DNA of 64,000 nucleotides from Brevundimonas variabilis. GTDB taxonomy: Bacteria > Pseudomonadota > Alphaproteobacteria > Caulobacterales > Caulobacteraceae. The position numbers and the translations under genes are program-made. The notes under the pieces were generated by a model that saw only the letters and a program-made list of their open reading frames with translations, was not told where the DNA came from and ran no database searches. Positions 2,727 to 45,024 of the stretch are shown one piece after another. Numbering within the stretch: position 1 is the stretch's first letter; each line of letters starts with the position of its first letter. The DNA is taken from assembly GCF_014199945.1 (NCBI RefSeq), contig NZ_JACHOR010000001.1, positions 620,001 through 684,000 on the forward strand, read 5' to 3'.

Positions 2727-2807
2727 GGGGAAACCACAGGGTGACGGATCGCGCCCCCCGGCTCAAGGGTGAACGCCATCTCTTGCAGCCCCTTCCGGCC
2801 CCTGCGA

Positions 2808-2985
2808 TAGGTCCATCAGGCGGTTAAGGGAACGCGGTCGAACACCGCGGCTGTGCCCGCAACTGTAGGCGGGGAGACCCGCGTCCGCTCCGGAGATCCG
2901 TCTCCGGCGCCACTGGGACCCGTCCGCGGGTTCTGGGAAGGCGTGGACGCCGGTCACTGATCCGCAAGCCAGGAGACCTGGCCGC
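2808..2985 (+). promoter_or_regulatory. Cobalamin (adenosylcobalamin) riboswitch upstream of btuB
   Basis: The 440-bp gap between mutS and btuB holds the conserved blocks of the cobalamin riboswitch in the right order. They are GGGAACGCGGT and CTGTGCCCGCAACTGTA near 2828-2868, the B12-box-like GCGCCACTGGG near 2907-2918, and the closing GCCAGGAGACCTGGCC at 2968-2983. It is on the same strand as btuB and ends about 180 nt before its ATG. Family knowledge: cobalamin binding to the aptamer represses expression of the downstream gene, here by hiding the ribosome site or terminating transcription. I did not resolve which. The remainder of the gap holds nothing else I recognise. Confidence 0.95.
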
Positions 2986-3166
2986 CGATGTCGTTCGTCC
3001 GCTGTCCGGGACCAGACAGAGGCGTGGGGCCAACCCTTCCCGATGCGGGAAGACGTTCCGTTGAAGCGACCCGATCTCTGCGCCGTTCCGGACCTCGCTC
3101 CGGAGCGGATTGGTCGCATTCATCGCCCCGCGCGCGCCGTCGCGGGGCCTGACGGAGTACGCCTGC

Positions 3167-5011
3167 ATGCGTCACCTTCTGTATTCGCCTGCCCTTCTGG
3201 CGGTCGGCCTTGCCCTGCCCGCCGTGGCGCAGGACCGCGATCGCGAGACGCCTGAACTGGACGAGGTCATCGTCACGGCCACCCGCCTGCCCGCCATCGT
3301 GTCCGACACTCCCGGTGCCCGCGTCATCGATGCCGAAACGATCCAGCAGCGCGGTGCCGTCTTCGCCGCCGACATCCTGAGCGACATCCCCAGCCTGTCG
3401 GTGGTGCGGGCCGGAGCCTTCGGTGGCGTGGCCCAGGTCCGCATCCGGGGCGCCACGCCCGGCAAGACCCTGACCCTGGTCGATGGCGTACCGGTCAATG
3501 ACCCGGCCGAGGTCAATGGAGCCTTCGATTTCTCGGGCTTCGAACTGGGCGATATCGAGCGGATCGAGGTCCTGTCGGGACCGCAGTCCTCGCTGTGGGG
3601 ATCCGACGCCATCGGTGGCGTCATCGCCTTCACCACCCGCGAGGTGAACGGCGTTCGCGCCGAGGCGGAAGCGGGTTCATACGACACCCGGCGCGGTCGT
3701 CTGGCTGCCGGCGTCGCGAAGGACACCTATGCCTTCGGGGCCTGGGTCTCGCGGTTCGACACCGACGGCATCTCGGCCGCCGACGAAGCCGATGGCAATC
3801 CGGAGGCCGACGGCTTTCGCAGCACCACCGTCGGAGCCCGCGGCCGCTACGCCTTCACGCCGGGGGTCGAGATCGACGGCTCGGTCCGCTGGTCGGACTC
3901 AAGGGCCGACATCGACGGCTTCCCCGCTCCGTCCTTCGCCCTCGCCGACACCCCGGACACGACCGCCAGCGAACAGGTGTCCGGTTTTGCCCGGTTGAAG
4001 GCGCCCCTGTTCGGGCTTTCCCACCAGTTCAGTCTCTCGGCCTCCGACATCGCCCGCGACACCGTTTCCGACTTCCCCTCGTCCTTCGAGGCTGACCGGC
4101 AGGTCTATCGCTGGCAGGCCGACGGCGCGGCCCTGGACGACGCGCTGTCCTATGCGTTCGGGGCGGAGCGCGAGGAGACTGAGGGCAGTCTTTCGGACGG
4201 CACGACGGCCGACCTCGGCAGCACGGCCCTGTTCGGCGTCGCCCGATATGAAGTCTCGGATCGCCTCAGCGTCACGGGGGGCCTGCGGCTGGACCACACC
4301 GACGATTTCGGGTCCGAGACAACGGGCCGCCTGTCGGCGGCCCTGGACCTCGATGGCGGCTTCATCCTGTCGGGGGCCTTCGGAACGGGCTTCAAGGCGC
4401 CGTCGATCAGCCAGGCGGTCTGCGACTTCTGCTTTTCCGCCGCCCCCTTCCCGGTGCTGACGCCGGAAACCGCTGACAGTGGCGAGATCGCACTTGGCTG
4501 GGCCTCTCCCGATGGCCGGTTCGACGGGCGTGCCACCCTGTACCGGCTGAGCGTCCAGGACCAGATCACCTATGTCTTCGACCCGATCACCTTCGACGCG
4601 GCCTACGTCAACATTGCCGAGACGCGGACCGATGGTGTCGAACTCGAAGGCCGTGCGGACCTGGGTTCGGGCTTTGACCTGACGATCGCCTATGCCTGGA
4701 CCGATGCCCGGGACGAGACGACGGGCACCCGGCTGCTGCGTGTTCCGGAACACGCCGGCTCAGCCACGCTGGCCTGGGCCGCAGATCGACTGTCCGGGGC
4801 CCTGACGCTGCGGGCCGAAGGGGACCAGGACGATGCGGGCGGGGTCCGGGACAGTTTTGTCACCGCCAACCTGAATGCCGCCTGGCAGGTCACGGACGAC
4901 GTCGCCCTGACGGCCCGGATCGAGAACCTGGCCGACGCGCGGTATCAGCAGGTGCGAGGCTATGGCGAGCCGGGTCGATCCGCCTATGTCGGGGTCCGTT
5001 TCCAGTACTGA
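3167..5011 (+). CDS. btuB: TonB-dependent vitamin B12 receptor BtuB
   Basis: Outer-membrane gated porin that imports cobalamin using TonB energy. The ATG at 3167 has a GGAG 10 nt upstream and opens a clear signal peptide (LLYSPALLAVGLALPAVAQ). A longer frame starting with TTG at 3110 would bury that signal, so it was rejected. After the signal come a TonB box (DEVIVTATR), the plug domain with IRGATPGKTLTLVDGVPV, and a long beta-barrel ending in an aromatic residue (VGVRFQY). The 614-residue length equals E. coli BtuB. The upstream cobalamin riboswitch fixes the substrate call. No btuCDF or cob genes are adjacent. A GC-rich hairpin follows at 5021-5048. Confidence 0.95.
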   Translation: MRHLLYSPALLAVGLALPAVAQDRDRETPELDEVIVTATRLPAIVSDTPGARVIDAETIQQRGAVFAADILSDIPSLSVVRAGAFGGVAQVRIRGATPGKTLTLVDGVPVNDPAEVNGAFDFSGFELGDIERIEVLSGPQSSLWGSDAIGGVIAFTTREVNGVRAEAEAGSYDTRRGRLAAGVAKDTYAFGAWVSRFDTDGISAADEADGNPEADGFRSTTVGARGRYAFTPGVEIDGSVRWSDSRADIDGFPAPSFALADTPDTTASEQVSGFARLKAPLFGLSHQFSLSASDIARDTVSDFPSSFEADRQVYRWQADGAALDDALSYAFGAEREETEGSLSDGTTADLGSTALFGVARYEVSDRLSVTGGLRLDHTDDFGSETTGRLSAALDLDGGFILSGAFGTGFKAPSISQAVCDFCFSAAPFPVLTPETADSGEIALGWASPDGRFDGRATLYRLSVQDQITYVFDPITFDAAYVNIAETRTDGVELEGRADLGSGFDLTIAYAWTDARDETTGTRLLRVPEHAGSATLAWAADRLSGALTLRAEGDQDDAGGVRDSFVTANLNAAWQVTDDVALTARIENLADARYQQVRGYGEPGRSAYVGVRFQY

Positions 5012-6879: not shown

Positions 6880-6904
6880 GGAACCGCAAGCCTGCTCTGG
6901 CGTT
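6880..6904 (+). promoter_or_regulatory. EcfG/SigT-type stress promoter for DUF883 operon
   Basis: GGAAC (6880-6884), exactly 16 nt, then CGTT (6901-6904). This is the established consensus of the alphaproteobacterial general stress sigma factor. Predicted transcription start is near 6911, giving a leader of about 48 nt to the ATG at 6959. The rest of the 277-bp gap back to the GST gene holds nothing else I recognise. Confidence 0.85.
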
Positions 6905-6958
6905 GAGGCCACGACACCTCTATCTAACCGTCAAGCTTACATGACCGGAGATCGCATC

Positions 6959-7303
6959 ATGGCTACGACCAAAGCCCGAGAAGACATCAAGAACGACCTG
7001 AAGACCCTCAAGGAGGACGTCAAGGTCGCAGCACGCGAGGAAACCTCGCGCCTGAAGGAAAAGGCGGCGGAAGCCGAATCCGTCCTTCGCGACAAGACCG
7101 AGGAAGTGCGCGAGCGCGCCCGCGGCTACTATGATCAGGCCCGTCTTCGCGGCCGCGAATATTATGACGATGCGTCGGAGCGTTTCGACGAGGCCCAGCG
7201 CTATGTGACCGAGCGCGTGCAGGAACGTCCGGTCCAGTCCACGGCCATCGCCCTTGGCGTCGGCGTCGTCCTCGGCCTTCTGCTGGCCGGCCGCCGTCGC
7301 TGA
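6959..7303 (+). CDS. DUF883 family (ElaB/YqjD-like) membrane-anchored protein
   Basis: A 114-residue protein. Residues 1-90 are a highly charged helix rich in Glu, Lys and Arg (LKTLKEDVKVAAREETSRLKEK), with later Tyr-rich turns (ARGYYDQARLRGREYYDD). The C-terminus is a single membrane helix (STAIALGVGVVLGLLLAG) ending in RRR. This is the ElaB/YqjD/DUF883 layout; E. coli YqjD tethers ribosomes to the inner membrane in stationary phase. The ATG at 6959 has GGAG 8 nt upstream; the longer frame from 6836 lacks support. The stop overlaps the next gene by 1 nt (TGATG). An EcfG-type promoter at 6880-6904 predicts induction under general stress. Confidence 0.88.
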   Translation: MATTKAREDIKNDLKTLKEDVKVAAREETSRLKEKAAEAESVLRDKTEEVRERARGYYDQARLRGREYYDDASERFDEAQRYVTERVQERPVQSTAIALGVGVVLGLLLAGRRR

Positions 7304-7710
7304 TGATCGGCCGGGGCCTCATCAAGAAACTGGTCGCGGGATTTGCCGCGGCCGGAGCCGCCCTGGTCGCCGTGGTCGCAACAGGGGCCACCCTGTTCTA
7401 CGGCCTGACGCTGCTGATGCATCCCGCCGGAGCCGCCGCCATCACGGCGGGGGTCTTCGCCCTGATTTCGGGCGGCCTCTTCCTTGCCATGTCCGGCAAG
7501 GCGGACGGAGGTCGCGACGAGGATGAGGAAGACGATCACGAACCCGAGGGGCTTGGCGGTCGTGCCTATGCCCTGATCCGCAGCCGCCCCGTTCTCGGGA
7601 CGGTGGCGGCCCTGGCGGGTGGCTGGATCTTCCTTCGGAATCCGGCCCTCGCCACCATGGTCGCAGCGGCCTTTACAGAGCGCACGCGCGGTCCACGCCG
7701 CTATCGCTGA
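7303..7710 (+). CDS. Small multi-pass membrane protein coupled to DUF883 gene
   Basis: A 135-residue inner-membrane protein with no family I can name with certainty. Two membrane helices lie in the first 65 residues (AAGAALVAVVATGATLFYG and ITAGVFALISGGLFLAM), then an acidic linker (DEDEEDDHE), then a third hydrophobic segment (VLGTVAALAGGWIF) and a basic tail. Its ATG overlaps the DUF883 stop by 1 nt, so the two are co-translated. Membrane proteins of the YqjE/holin-like type sit beside YqjD in enterobacteria, and this looks like an analogous partner. It is followed by a strong intrinsic terminator. Confidence 0.8.
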   Translation: MIGRGLIKKLVAGFAAAGAALVAVVATGATLFYGLTLLMHPAGAAAITAGVFALISGGLFLAMSGKADGGRDEDEEDDHEPEGLGGRAYALIRSRPVLGTVAALAGGWIFLRNPALATMVAAAFTERTRGPRRYR

Positions 7711-7730
7711 TCCGGCTCATGCCGGAAAGA

Positions 7731-7762
7731 GCCCCGCGTCCTTCCGGATGCGGGGTTTTTTC
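7731..7762 (+). terminator. Intrinsic terminator after DUF883 operon
   Basis: CCCCGC-GTCC stem pairing with GGA-T-GCGGGG over a short loop, followed immediately by six T (7756-7761). It lies 21 nt after the stop of the membrane protein, before the convergent phosphoesterase stop. Confidence 0.9.
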
Positions 7763-7773
7763 ATGCCCTGAGA

Positions 7774-8625
7774 TCAGACGGCGGCCTGTTCCATGACGCC
7801 CGGCGTCGTCGGGTCGGGGGCCGTTGCGGCCTTGCGGGTGTCCTGACGGCGCGCAAGCTTCCAGTCCGGCCCCGCCTCGAAGGCCTCGCCGTTCCACTCC
7901 ATCGCCGTGACCACGATCTCGTGCGCGCTCCACGACACATCATTGAACGAGGGACGCGCACCGCGCTCACGCTTGGACAGGGTGCCACAGCCCACGGCAT
8001 AGGAGCAGCGGTCTGACAGATCGATGGCGAGGGCAAACGGCACATGCACATGCCCCGTCATGATCAGGTCGACACCGGCCTCGGCAAAGATCAGCGCCGC
8101 CTCGTCACCCCGCTTGACGTCGCCTGTCATCGGCGTGCCGACCATCTCGACGAGGGGATGATGGCAGGCCAGGACCCGCAGCGTACCGATCGGCGCCTGA
8201 CGCAGCGCCTCGGCCGCGCGCCGGGTCTGGTCCAGATCGATGACGCCCTTGGACCAGTTGGCACGCGCCTGCCAGCCGCGCGCCGTGGTCACGCCGCGCA
8301 CCATCACGCTGTCGCCGATGAACTGACCATCGTGGGCGGGATGGCCCGTGGCGGTCTCGAAGGCCTTCCACGGCTCGAACACGCGCGCAAAGGCGTCATA
8401 GTAGGGCACGTCGTGGTTGCCCACGATGACGAACCGGGGCTCGGGCATGGCGCGGATCCAGCGCCCGGCGGCCTCGAATTCCTCCGGCAGGCCCTTCTGC
8501 GTCACATCCCCCGTGATCAGGATAAGGTCCGACGGCGTCGCATGGGCATAAGCCAGCGCCGCCTCGCAGGCATCGGCATGCTCCACCCCGAAATGAATGT
8601 CCGAGAACTGCAGCAGGCGACCCAC
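7774..8625 (-). CDS. Calcineurin-like metallophosphoesterase
   Basis: A 283-residue cytoplasmic phosphoesterase with the five metal-binding blocks in order: FSDIHFG, ITGDVTQKG, VGNHDVPYYD, LACHHPL and MTGHVHVPF. The layout resembles the CpdA/GpdQ class (3',5'-cAMP or glycerophosphodiester hydrolases), but the substrate cannot be read from sequence. The start is GTG at 8625. It shares one base with the TAG stop of the upstream lipid kinase gene (TAGTG), so the pair is translationally coupled. A longer open frame to 9075 overlaps the kinase in another frame and is spurious. The pair lies behind an EcfG-type promoter, pointing to a role in stress-linked lipid or nucleotide turnover. Confidence 0.9.
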   Translation of the reverse strand: MGRLLQFSDIHFGVEHADACEAALAYAHATPSDLILITGDVTQKGLPEEFEAAGRWIRAMPEPRFVIVGNHDVPYYDAFARVFEPWKAFETATGHPAHDGQFIGDSVMVRGVTTARGWQARANWSKGVIDLDQTRRAAEALRQAPIGTLRVLACHHPLVEMVGTPMTGDVKRGDEAALIFAEAGVDLIMTGHVHVPFALAIDLSDRCSYAVGCGTLSKRERGARPSFNDVSWSAHEIVVTAMEWNGEAFEAGPDWKLARRQDTRKAATAPDPTTPGVMEQAAV

Positions 8626-9578
8626 TAGCGGACGGCTCCGGCCGTTTCGGTACGGGGAGCCAGCGCCATGAAGGCCTTTGGGATGAAGGTTATGACGGTC
8701 TCGTGCGGAAGCAGCATCGGTTCTCCGTCGACGACGGCCGGGATCTTCGAACGGCCCCAGGCCTCGATGCGCCGGGCAGACTTGGTCGAGACCGATGGAT
8801 CGTGGCGCCAGTCGCTGAACAGGGCATTGGCGGCCAGACGAAACGCCTGGCTCGTGTCGGACGGATCCATGGCTGCGGCCTCCAGGCCAATGGGTTCGTC
8901 CATGGCCGCGGAAATCATCGGACTGATCAGCACCAGCGCCTCGGTCTTCCGGCGATCCGAACCATCCAGCGAGTAGCGCAGGCGACCGGAGAACGCCCGG
9001 CGCAGGGCCCGGCGACCATATTGCCAGGCCTTCTTCAGCTTGCCGGTCCGCATGGCCTCGCGGGCCGGTGCCCACAGGGCTGGCGAGCCCAGGATGGCTG
9101 CACAGAAGAAGGCCTGGCCTTCGACCGTGCCGCCCGCGACAGGCTGCGGCACACCGTGCTCGAGCGCCTGCCTCAGGGCCAGCTTCCAGTCCGTTGTGCC
9201 ATACAGGGCCTTGGGCAGCATGTTCATGGTGCCGCCCGGCAGCGGCGCGACCAGCGGACCCTTCGGCCCGGCCCTCGAGGCGACCGTCCCGGCCGTGCCG
9301 TCACCGGCCAGCACGAAGATGACGTCGGGCTTGTTCGCGAAGGCCTTCTGGACCTGGGTATCGAACGCGCCGTCCTCCAGCGAGACCACCTCGAAATCCA
9401 GCGGATATTCGCTGAGGATCGCGTCCAGTTCTCCCACGGCCCGGGGCCCGACCGAGCCGGACAGCGGATTCACCAGCACGCTGATGCGCTGGATCGCCAC
9501 GTGGGGAGTCAGGCTTCGCGGCTCGGGCGCCGCTCCGGCCTGTGTCGGGACGTCGAAAGGTGTCATTGTCTCGCTCAT
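8625..9578 (-). CDS. Diacylglycerol kinase catalytic-domain (YegS/DagK-like) lipid kinase
   Basis: A 317-residue soluble lipid kinase. The DAGKc domain starts at IQRISVLVNPLSGSVG, followed by the nucleotide site VLAGDGT (the usual GGDGT with the first Gly replaced by Ala) and APLPGGTMNMLPKAL. A C-terminal beta-sandwich region ends with VVDGEPMLL. Family members phosphorylate diacylglycerol, sphingosine or related lipids with ATP. The substrate here is unknown. ATG 9578 lies about 2 nt from the predicted start of transcription from the EcfG promoter at 9587-9611. An internal ATG at 9566 would leave a 14-nt leader and may be the true start. It is coupled to the phosphoesterase by a 1-nt overlap. 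Confidence 0.9.
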   Translation of the reverse strand: MSETMTPFDVPTQAGAAPEPRSLTPHVAIQRISVLVNPLSGSVGPRAVGELDAILSEYPLDFEVVSLEDGAFDTQVQKAFANKPDVIFVLAGDGTAGTVASRAGPKGPLVAPLPGGTMNMLPKALYGTTDWKLALRQALEHGVPQPVAGGTVEGQAFFCAAILGSPALWAPAREAMRTGKLKKAWQYGRRALRRAFSGRLRYSLDGSDRRKTEALVLISPMISAAMDEPIGLEAAAMDPSDTSQAFRLAANALFSDWRHDPSVSTKSARRIEAWGRSKIPAVVDGEPMLLPHETVITFIPKAFMALAPRTETAGAVR

Positions 9579-9586
9579 CGCCCCCG

Positions 9587-9611
9587 AACGCCCGCCTTGG
9601 CGGACCGTTCC
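9587..9611 (-). promoter_or_regulatory. EcfG/SigT-type promoter for lipid kinase-phosphoesterase operon
   Basis: Read on the minus strand, GGAAC (9611-9607), 16 nt, CGTT (9590-9587). It is a perfect consensus match. Predicted transcription start is about 9580, nearly at the annotated ATG, so the message may be leaderless or use the ATG at 9566. Confidence 0.85.
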
Positions 9612-9694
9612 GCCGCAAGCGTGACTATTGGCACCACAATCGAACTATGGCCATCTGCTCCGGTCACCGGTTCGAGGTTCATCTGGTCGTTCAG

Positions 9695-9719
9695 GGAACA
9701 GTCATTGTGAAGCTGCGTT
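9695..9719 (+). promoter_or_regulatory. EcfG/SigT-type promoter for glycine-zipper lipoprotein
   Basis: GGAAC (9695-9699), 16 nt, CGTT (9716-9719), perfect consensus, divergent from the promoter at 9587-9611. Predicted transcription start is near 9726, about 44 nt before the ATG at 9770. Confidence 0.85.
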
Positions 9720-9769: not shown

Positions 9770-10114
9770 ATGAAACTCGCAATCATCGCCATCGGCGCTG
9801 CCGGTCTGCTGGCCTCGGCCTGCGCAACCGATCCGTACGGCAACACCGGCCTTAGCGAAACCGGCCGCCAGGGCGCCATCGGCGCAGGCCTCGGCGCCGT
9901 CGCCGGTGCCATCATCGGCAACAACGTCGGCAGCGGCAACGCCGGAACCGGCGCCGCCATCGGCGCCCTCGCCGGCGGCGCCGCCGGTGCCATCCGCGGT
10001 TCGAACCAGGACCGTCGCAACCAGCAGCGTTATGGCTCGCAAGGCCAATACTACTACTGCTACGACAACCGTCAGACCGAGTGCTACTGGGAAGACGGTC
10101 GCCGTCGCCAGTAG
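9770..10114 (+). CDS. Glycine-zipper lipoprotein
   Basis: A 114-residue lipoprotein. It opens with a lipoprotein signal peptide (MKLAIIAIGAAGLLASAC, lipid Cys at about 18). Residues 35-80 form a glycine zipper (GAIGAGLGAVAGAIIGNNVG and GAAIGALAGGAAGAI) of the YMGG/17-kDa antigen type. The Tyr- and Cys-rich tail contains YYYCYDNRQTECYW. Family members sit in the outer membrane or periplasm, and exact functions are mostly unknown. The ATG at 9770 has an AAGGGA element 8 nt upstream; an earlier in-frame ATG at 9728 lies before the ribosome site and was rejected. The EcfG-type promoter upstream marks it as a general stress gene. Confidence 0.88.
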   Translation: MKLAIIAIGAAGLLASACATDPYGNTGLSETGRQGAIGAGLGAVAGAIIGNNVGSGNAGTGAAIGALAGGAAGAIRGSNQDRRNQQRYGSQGQYYYCYDNRQTECYWEDGRRRQ

Positions 10115-10247: not shown

Positions 10248-10697
10248 ATGCGTTTTGTCATTCTTGCCGCCACGGCGGCTGCGATTGCCGGTCTGTCAGC
10301 CTGTGCCAGCGGAAGGGCCCCGGCGCGGGAGTCCATCGTCGCCGCTCCCACGGACTGTCGATCCCAGACCTTCGAAGTCTATTTTGCCGACGGCGAGGCG
10401 CGACTGACGGAAACGGCGCGTCAGGTGATTGGCCTCACGGCGACCCAGTTGCAGGGATGCGATATCCAGCGGGTGCAGGTGATCGGCCTCGCGGACGCCA
10501 GCGGTGCGGCCAGCCTGAACCAGACCCTGTCACAGCGGCGCGCCACGGCCGTTGCCGAAGCCCTGGCGGCCGCCGGCTGGCCGACGCCGGTCTTCGAAGT
10601 TGCGGCAGCAGGCGGGCAGGGTGCCACCGTGGCCCCCGGGGTGGCCGAGCCTCTGCGTCGTCGGACCGAAGTGATCGTCACGGCCGCGCCGCTCTGA
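10248..10697 (+). CDS. OmpA-family peptidoglycan-associated lipoprotein
   Basis: A 149-residue outer-membrane lipoprotein. The signal peptide ends in a lipobox (GLSACASG, Cys near 19). The rest is an OmpA/MotB C-terminal domain: FEVYFADGEARLTETARQVI, then QVIGLADASGAASLNQTLSQRRA, where the family shows the peptidoglycan-binding NxxLSxxRA motif, and a final RRRTEVIV strand. Such domains bind meso-diaminopimelate in peptidoglycan. GGGA lies 12 nt before the ATG. No EcfG promoter was found for it, although it follows a stress lipoprotein on the same strand. Confidence 0.85.
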   Translation: MRFVILAATAAAIAGLSACASGRAPARESIVAAPTDCRSQTFEVYFADGEARLTETARQVIGLTATQLQGCDIQRVQVIGLADASGAASLNQTLSQRRATAVAEALAAAGWPTPVFEVAAAGGQGATVAPGVAEPLRRRTEVIVTAAPL

Positions 10698-43515: not shown

Positions 43516-43995
43516 TCAGCGTCCACCGAGCGTGGAGCGCAGCATCCAGGCGAACTTTTCGTGGGCGGCGAGACGCTGGGTCAGAAGATCGACGGTCGCC
43601 TCGTCGGAGGCCGAGTCGGCCACCTCGATGGCGGCACGCGAGGTCGCAATCAGCGTTTCATGGTCCTTCATCAGCTCTTTCAGCATCTCCAGAGCCTCCT
43701 TGTCCGGATCCCCGTCCTTGATGGAGGTCAGGTTGGCAAAGGTGGCGTGGCCCTGAGGGGCGACAACACCCAGAGCACGAATGCGTTCGGCGATATCATC
43801 CAGCGCCGCCCACATATCGCGGTACTGTTGCTCGAGCAGATTGTGGAAGCTGAAGAACTCGGGGCCACGCACATTCCAGTGATAGCCGTGGGTCTTCATG
43901 TAGACGGCAAAACTGTCGGCCAGAACCTTGGTCAGTTCCTGCGCGACGTCGGTGCGTTCAGCCTTGGTAAAGCCCGTGTCGATGGTGGCAGTCAT
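43516..43995 (-). CDS. dps: Dps-family DNA-binding ferritin-like protein
   Basis: A 159-residue dodecameric mini-ferritin that oxidises and stores iron and shields DNA in starvation and oxidative stress. The intersubunit ferroxidase residues are visible: TKVLADSFAVYMKTHGYHWNV (His) and EQQYRDMWAALDDIAERIRA (Asp, Glu). The end is LAAHEKFAWMLRSTLG. The N-terminus is short and has few Lys, so DNA binding may be weak. AGGAG lies 8 nt before the ATG on the minus strand. An EcfG-like promoter with one mismatch lies at 44116-44140. Confidence 0.95.
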   Translation of the reverse strand: MTATIDTGFTKAERTDVAQELTKVLADSFAVYMKTHGYHWNVRGPEFFSFHNLLEQQYRDMWAALDDIAERIRALGVVAPQGHATFANLTSIKDGDPDKEALEMLKELMKDHETLIATSRAAIEVADSASDEATVDLLTQRLAAHEKFAWMLRSTLGGR

Positions 43996-44788: not shown

Positions 44789-44974
44789 CTAGTTTGGTTT
44801 CTGAGCCTGTCCCACGGCCGTCCCTGCGGCAGCCCCCACCGCAGCACCGACAGGTCCACCGACGACGGCACCCGCCACGGCACCGGTTGCGGCACGCTGT
44901 TCGATCGTCGTTCCACAGGCCGCCAGACCAAGGGCGGAAACGAATGCGACAATGATAGCGACAGGACGGGTCAT
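44789..44974 (-). CDS. Short glycine-zipper lipoprotein
   Basis: A 61-residue lipoprotein. The signal peptide ends in ALGLAACGTT (lipid Cys near 20). The mature part is almost wholly a glycine zipper (AVAGAVVGGPVGAAVGAAAG), like the entericidin/Slp-small lipoproteins that sit in the outer membrane. ATG 44974 has GGAG 6 nt upstream; the longer frame from 45058 is rejected because it precedes the promoter-proximal ribosome site. A perfect EcfG-type promoter at 45000-45024 would start the message about 20 nt before the ATG. It belongs with the 9.8 kb gene as a general-stress lipoprotein. Confidence 0.85.
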   Translation of the reverse strand: MTRPVAIIVAFVSALGLAACGTTIEQRAATGAVAGAVVGGPVGAAVGAAAGTAVGQAQKPN

Positions 44975-44999: not shown

Positions 45000-45024
45000 A
45001 ACGCAACCCCGCCACCACGGTTCC
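45000..45024 (-). promoter_or_regulatory. EcfG/SigT-type promoter for short lipoprotein
   Basis: On the minus strand GGAAC (45024-45020), 16 nt, CGTT (45003-45000), perfect consensus. Predicted transcription start is near 44993. Confidence 0.85.

What the first reader, a model, noticed from the sequence alone, without database searches (positions are those of the whole stretch)
6880..9719. Three perfect general-stress promoters in 2.9 kb
GGAAC-N16-CGTT occurs without mismatch at 6880-6904 (+), 9587-9611 (-) and 9695-9719 (+). Each is placed correctly before a gene: the DUF883 membrane operon, the lipid kinase-phosphoesterase pair and a glycine-zipper lipoprotein. The last two are divergent in one 191-bp gap. 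This marks a small envelope and lipid stress island and gives a condition for genes of unknown role.
Basis: partly seen in the sequence, partly recalled or inferred. Interest (0 to 1): 0.7.

Follow-up and report, generated by a model that had tools for sequence, protein, structure and literature searches.

The report
Conserved stress-promoter island, one leaderless
Three perfect general-stress switches in a Brevundimonas genome sit before membrane and lipid genes, recur at the same genes in nearly all relatives examined, and one lies so close to its gene that the message probably begins at the start codon.

Summary
GGAAC-N16-CGTT is exact at 6880-6904 (+), 9587-9611 (-) and 9695-9719 (+); chance expectation 0.35 per window. 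A fourth copy was missed at 45000-45024 (-). Raw genome counts equal a reversed control (35 v 37), but 22 of 35 sites v 1 of 30 controls lie outside genes within 200 nt of a start. The genome has PhyR, NepR and EcfG, with two sites divergently before them. In the genus (Brevundimonas) the exact motif, with changing spacers, precedes DUF883 in 41 of 41 loci, the lipid kinase in 56 of 57 and the lipoprotein in 54 of 57. In 30 of 41 loci another site lies in a gap where the window has none, before a DUF1328 gene where readable. The kinase promoter abuts its start codon (CGTT-N8-ATG), predicting a leaderless mRNA; a PAP2 gene elsewhere is alike. ATG 7-9 nt after CGTT occurs 397 times, against 91 and 51 at neighbouring spacings, in 61 genomes. 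Verdict: real EcfG-type promoters, a known kind, with a leaderless branch. Outside the genus the kinase site is less constant (20 of 40). No expression data.

The parts
6880..6904 (+). EcfG-type promoter (GGAAC-N16-CGTT) of the DUF883 operon; 54 nt before the ATG at 6959
   Evidence: exact site in 41 of 41 genus loci, in 30 of 30 loci of a partly overlapping set, and in 21 of 25 loci of other genera
6959..7303 (+). DUF883 (YqjD-like) small membrane protein, 114 aa
   Evidence: PF19029 E 1.1e-8; profile of its relatives matches E. coli YqjD, E 6.6e-10 in a set of 8 proteins
7303..7710 (+). 135-aa membrane protein, start overlaps DUF883 stop; sub-threshold Phage_holin_3_6 match; homology to YqjE not shown
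7774..8625 (-). calcineurin-like metallophosphoesterase, overlaps the lipid kinase stop
   Evidence: PF00149 E 1.9e-15; adjacent to the kinase in 39 of 40 loci of other genera
8625..9578 (-). diacylglycerol-kinase-family lipid kinase, predicted leaderless mRNA starting at or next to the ATG
   Evidence: PF00781 E 6.1e-13; in-frame start 5-9 nt after CGTT in 54 of 57 genus loci
9587..9611 (-). EcfG-type promoter abutting the lipid kinase start (CGTT-N8-ATG)
   Evidence: 56 of 57 genus loci
9695..9719 (+). EcfG-type promoter of the glycine-zipper lipoprotein; 50 nt before the ATG at 9770
   Evidence: 54 of 57 genus loci
9770..10114 (+). glycine-zipper lipoprotein, 114 aa
   Evidence: PF13441, PF13488 above cut-off; lipoprotein from the sequence
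10248..10697 (+). OmpA-family lipoprotein, neighbour without its own EcfG site; served as negative control gene
   Evidence: PF00691 E 6.2e-14; site in 1 of 26 loci of other genera
   Evidence: exact site in 30 of 30 genus loci examined
44789..44974 (-). 61-aa lipoprotein with a glycine-zipper-like stretch (below Pfam cut-off)

Best explanation
The three sites (and a fourth at 45 kb) are promoters of the EcfG (sigma-T) general stress sigma factor. When stress activates PhyR, NepR is titrated, EcfG is freed and its RNA polymerase transcribes the DUF883 membrane operon to the right, the lipid kinase-phosphoesterase operon to the left, and a glycine-zipper lipoprotein to the right. Together with PAP2, OmpA-like, entericidin-like and other small envelope genes this would reinforce the cell envelope and adjust lipid phosphates. 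The lipid kinase message begins at or within a base or two of its start codon, so it is leaderless and needs no Shine-Dalgarno site. Shown here: motif, position, conservation, presence of the PhyR-NepR-EcfG module, start-codon spacing. Inferred: EcfG dependence, the start sites, the physiological role.
For: Exact motif against chance. Position: 22 of 35 v 1 of 30 controls. PhyR and EcfG domains, and NepR, with motif sites divergently before them in the same genome. Genus: 41/41, 56/57, 54/57 with free spacers, 30/30 for the fourth site. Other genera: DUF883 21/25, DUF1328 18/18, lipoprotein 6/6, against 1/26 for the neighbouring OmpA gene and 0 for the reversed motif in each set. Leaderless: 47 ATG at 8 nt, 4 ATG at 9, 2 GTG at 8, 1 GTG at 5 among 57 loci; PAP2 30 of 30 with an in-frame start 5-11 nt after CGTT; ATG at 7-9 nt 397 times v 91 at 10-12 and 51 at 4-6 in 61 genomes (summed in 59). 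In Caulobacter the SigT motif lies at the -35 region of mapped starts; a variant (GGAAC-N16-TGCT) is placed at -34 of one antisense start (PMC4287350, passages). Allowing one base either way, this puts +1 here at 9576-9578, on the ATG.
Against: No RNA data for this organism. Raw motif counts equal the reversed control. In other genera only 20 of 40 loci keep an exact site within 260 nt of the lipid kinase and only 12 of 40 have a start within 11 nt of CGTT. No lipid kinase, phosphoesterase or DUF883 gene is named in the C. crescentus SigT carbon-starvation table (PMC3073932, section 8 read), though that table holds many hypothetical proteins which I did not map. Related species are not independent counts.
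Confidence: 0.87

Rival explanations
1. Chance matches in a GC-rich genome that happen to fall before genes.
For: Genome-wide the exact pattern (35) is no commoner than its reversal (37).
Against: Position, conservation of the two boxes with changing spacers across species at 52-89% kinase identity, and the OmpA neighbour control.
Confidence: 0.02
2. The sites are recognised mainly by another ECF sigma factor with a similar promoter (a SigU-like factor or a second EcfG), not by the EcfG beside NepR.
For: ECF -35 boxes share a nearly invariant AAC core (PMC7083833, passages). I did not count the ECF sigma genes of this genome.
Against: Both boxes are exact, the same motif precedes phyR and nepR-ecfG here, and GGAAC-N16-CGTT is the published SigT motif (PMC4287350, passages).
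Confidence: 0.08
3. The lipid kinase is translated from a start codon further in, and the ATG 8 nt after the promoter is not used.
For: My codon-usage caller slightly preferred a GTG at 9500, and many alignments to relatives begin only at residues 8-26.
Against: An in-frame open start 5-9 nt after CGTT in 54 of 57 loci, including GTG at 8 nt in two; the same spacing at PAP2 and as a genus-wide peak.
Confidence: 0.12

Closest known systems
EcfG (sigma-T / RpoE2) general stress regulon of Alphaproteobacteria
   Same: GGAAC-N16/17-CGTT boxes; PhyR-NepR-EcfG module with divergent sites before phyR and nepR; targets include small envelope proteins
   Different: These target genes are not named as targets in the passages and section read here; several promoters abut the start codon
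E. coli DUF883 proteins (ElaB, YqjD)
   Same: DUF883 membrane protein under a general stress regulator (ElaB and RpoS: title of PMC6389858, listing only); profile match to YqjD
   Different: Different sigma factor; the second gene was not shown to be YqjE
Leaderless mRNAs of Alphaproteobacteria
   Same: 375 leaderless mRNAs, 9.6% of coding sequences, in C. crescentus (PMC4117421, passages); 171 leaderless starts in S. meliloti (PMC3616915, passages)
   Different: Here a class is tied to one stress sigma motif and kept at given genes across a genus; 'SigT' does not occur in the main text of PMC4117421. The S. meliloti paper assigned promoters to its leaderless starts and may hold RpoE2 cases in figures and tables I did not see

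Membership tests
EcfG/sigma-T promoters | -35 GGAAC and -10 CGTT, 16-17 nt apart | tested here: met
   exact at all four sites
EcfG/sigma-T promoters | located just upstream of a gene start on the same strand | tested here: met
   54, 8, 50 and 25 nt
EcfG/sigma-T promoters | genome encodes PhyR, NepR and EcfG | tested here: met
EcfG/sigma-T promoters | boxes conserved while the spacer drifts | tested here: met
EcfG/sigma-T promoters | transcription lost without EcfG | not testable with these tools
   needs a mutant and RNA
Leaderless mRNA (lipid kinase) | predicted +1 on the start codon | tested here: met
   CGTT-N8-ATG with the -34/-35 geometry of PMC4287350 (passages); the one-base tolerance is mine
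Leaderless mRNA (lipid kinase) | mapped 5' end at the ATG | not testable with these tools
   no RNA data
E. coli yqjDE operon | first gene DUF883 | tested here: met
E. coli yqjDE operon | second gene homologous to YqjE | tested here: not met
   ExuR, an unrelated protein of the same set, scored higher than YqjE

The most novel reading that the evidence does not exclude
The general stress response of Brevundimonas and several sister genera has a dedicated leaderless branch: EcfG promoters are merged with start codons at fixed spacing, notably at the lipid kinase and the PAP2 lipid phosphatase, so that envelope-lipid enzymes are translated from 5'-terminal AUGs by a route that persists when ordinary initiation is limited under stress.
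Probability: 0.3. Interest if true: 0.62.

Novelty: new member of a known kind. Interest (0 to 1): 0.45.

Tried and rejected
Raw genome-wide enrichment of the motif: none, so I used position and conservation. A palindrome-like AAGCTTG near EcfG sites looked like a second operator, but the full 12-mer GTCAAGCTTGAC is found in only 11 of 61 genomes, and intergenic base composition was not controlled; left unexplained. YqjE homology of the second operon gene: not supported. A known RNA at motif sites without an ORF: the Rfam search at gathering threshold of window, L037, L017, L019, L028, L029 and L022 gave one match, a cobalamin riboswitch in the window. The lipid kinase has only weak PDB relatives, so its lipid substrate stays open. 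In one search, 17 of 30 DUF883 loci (and the minus-strand kinase loci) were read in the wrong orientation; one search repeated both sets in the right one (30 of 30 and 30 of 30 with a site).

Literature: searches; most lists were capped (for EcfG with leaderless, one search showed 15 of 31 papers and one search showed 12 of 48). By title, abstract start and term counts, none of those listed has EcfG promoters of leaderless genes as its theme. PMC3616915 treats both RpoE2 promoters and leaderless starts; I saw passages only. The S. melonis table (PMC6599016, passages) shows several EcfG motifs 2-10 nt from predicted starts, and the word leaderless does not occur in its main text.

Full report
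Observation. The exact motif GGAAC-N16-CGTT occurs four times in the window: the three sites named and one more at 45000-45024 (-). Dinucleotide shuffles give 0.35 on average and at most 2 in 100 runs. The sites lie 54 nt before the DUF883 start (6959), 8 nt before the lipid kinase start (9578), 50 nt before the lipoprotein start (9770) and 25 nt before the small lipoprotein start (44974).

Genome control. The window lies at C1:620001-684000 of a 3.40 Mb genome. The pattern with N16 or N17 occurs 35 times; its reversal 37 times. So the count alone says nothing. With a home-made gene caller, 30 of 35 motif sites lie outside called genes against 5 of 30 control sites (30 of the 37 control sites had loci), and 22 of 35 against 1 of 30 lie outside genes and at most 200 nt before a same-strand start (Fisher p = 2.4e-7). 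The caller missed some small genes, the 61-aa lipoprotein among them, so 22 is probably low.

The machinery. NepR is at C1:740940-741041 (PF18557, E 3e-15). Sites at 740717-740741 (-) and 740785-740809 (+) face apart, before a protein with PhyR sigma-like and receiver domains and before nepR and an ECF sigma factor gene. This is the expected autoregulated layout and an internal positive control.

Conservation in the genus. Named contigs, some with the lengths of the unnamed ones, show the genus to be Brevundimonas. Of 61 genomes searched, 59 have the lipid kinase; besides the window I fetched 56 loci, leaving out two genomes with fragmentary matches. Exact motif with varying spacer: DUF883 41 of 41 (the gene was in the fetched stretch in 41 of 57), lipid kinase 56 of 57, lipoprotein 54 of 57. 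A second reading of the 30 best loci each gave 30 of 30 for DUF883, 13 of them in genomes outside the set of 41, and 30 of 30 for the kinase. In 30 of 41 loci holding both genes, a further exact site lies between the 135-aa gene and the phosphoesterase gene; in 23 of these 30 the ORF that my script picked reads by eye as a DUF1328-type small membrane protein, in 7 it picked another frame. One of them was tested and is DUF1328 (PF07043 E 4.2e-12). The window has no such site or gene in this gap. The fourth window site is kept in 30 of 30 loci examined (best 30 of 59 genomes with the gene).

Conservation in the family. Forty loci that I picked from the matches cover 16 other genera. The phosphoesterase is next to the lipid kinase in 39 of 40. 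Counting plus-strand genes with enough upstream sequence, an exact site precedes DUF883 in 21 of 25, DUF1328 in 18 of 18 and the lipoprotein in 6 of 6, but the neighbouring OmpA gene in only 1 of 26; the reversed motif gives 0 in each set. The lipid kinase has a site within 260 nt in 20 of 40, and a start within 11 nt of CGTT in 12 of 40. So the island is old, and the lipid-kinase promoter is the less constant part outside Brevundimonas.

The leaderless promoter. In 54 of 57 genus loci the first in-frame open start lies 5-9 nt after CGTT (47 ATG at 8, 4 ATG at 9, 2 GTG at 8, 1 GTG at 5); one locus was not resolved by the script and two had no site within its limits. In Caulobacter the SigT motif lies at the -35 region of mapped starts, and a variant is placed at -34 of one antisense start (PMC4287350, passages). 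Applied here with one base of tolerance, transcription begins at 9576-9578, on the ATG. The design is not unique. A PAP2-family phosphatase (PF01569 E 8.9e-21), about 110 kb from the island, has an exact site and an in-frame start 5-11 nt after CGTT in 30 of 30 loci (best 30 of 56 genomes with a match), 19 of them ATG at 8 nt. Over 61 genomes GGAAC-N16/17-CGTT is followed by ATG at 7-9 nt 397 times, at 10-12 nt 91 times and at 4-6 nt 51 times; reversed-pattern controls 24, 13 and 27 (sums). In a sample of four genomes 27 of 38 such ATGs open a coding-like frame of 60 aa or more, against 2 of 10 at 4-6 nt and 5 of 10 at 10-12 nt; at least one of the latter five is PAP2 itself with spacing 10. 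These counts share ancestry and are not independent. Leaderless mRNAs are common in this family (9.6% of coding sequences in C. crescentus, and there translated about as well as others; PMC4117421, passages), which lowers the surprise.

Gene content. Besides phyR and nepR-ecfG, the genes behind motif sites include an OmpA/glycine-zipper lipoprotein, an entericidin-like lipoprotein, a Crp-type regulator, PAP2 and several small membrane proteins or lipoproteins (those not read by eye). DUF883 matches E. coli YqjD; the RpoS link of ElaB is taken from the title of PMC6389858 (listing only). The lipid kinase (PF00781) and phosphoesterase (PF00149) genes overlap, and their substrate is unknown; weak PDB relatives are BmrU-type and other diacylglycerol kinases.

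Mechanism. Stress activates PhyR, which removes NepR from EcfG; EcfG polymerase then transcribes this island in both directions. The step from motif to EcfG dependence, and from lipid kinase and lipoproteins to envelope protection, is inference from known members of the regulon.

Verdict. The finding is right and stronger than stated: not one genome's coincidence but a conserved general-stress envelope island. Promoters of this type are well known, so it is a new member of a known kind; the recurrent abutting of EcfG promoters on start codons is the part a specialist may not expect.

Noticed in passing
45000-45024 (-): Fourth exact EcfG-type site before a small glycine-zipper-like lipoprotein, near a Dps-like gene (43516-43995, -; NCBIfam match below cut-off).
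   Followed up: yes
2780-2999 (+): Cobalamin riboswitch (RF00174, 70.3 bits) before an ORF at 3110-5011 that reads by eye as a TonB-dependent receptor.
   Followed up: no
6920-6939 (+): Conserved block CTATYTAAC..CAAGCTT about 15-20 nt after the -10 box in the DUF883 leader of many relatives; AAGCTTG-like words also recur near other EcfG sites, but the full palindrome is not regulon-wide.
   Followed up: partly
L178 5141-5167: In one relative the lipid-kinase promoter is an overlapping exact match on both strands, a possible bidirectional EcfG promoter.
   Followed up: no
G000:C1:778903-779051 (L017, L018): Two tandem exact sites, 124 nt from start to start, with no convincing ORF downstream; candidate stress-induced small RNA, no Rfam match at gathering threshold.
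   Followed up: partly
L339, L342, L349, L352, L361, L373, L374: Other genes with ATG 7-9 nt after an EcfG box in relatives: by eye YihY-like membrane proteins, an AarF/UbiB-like kinase and MgtC-like proteins. Names are recalled; only a 70-aa piece of L342 was searched, without a Pfam hit.
   Followed up: partly
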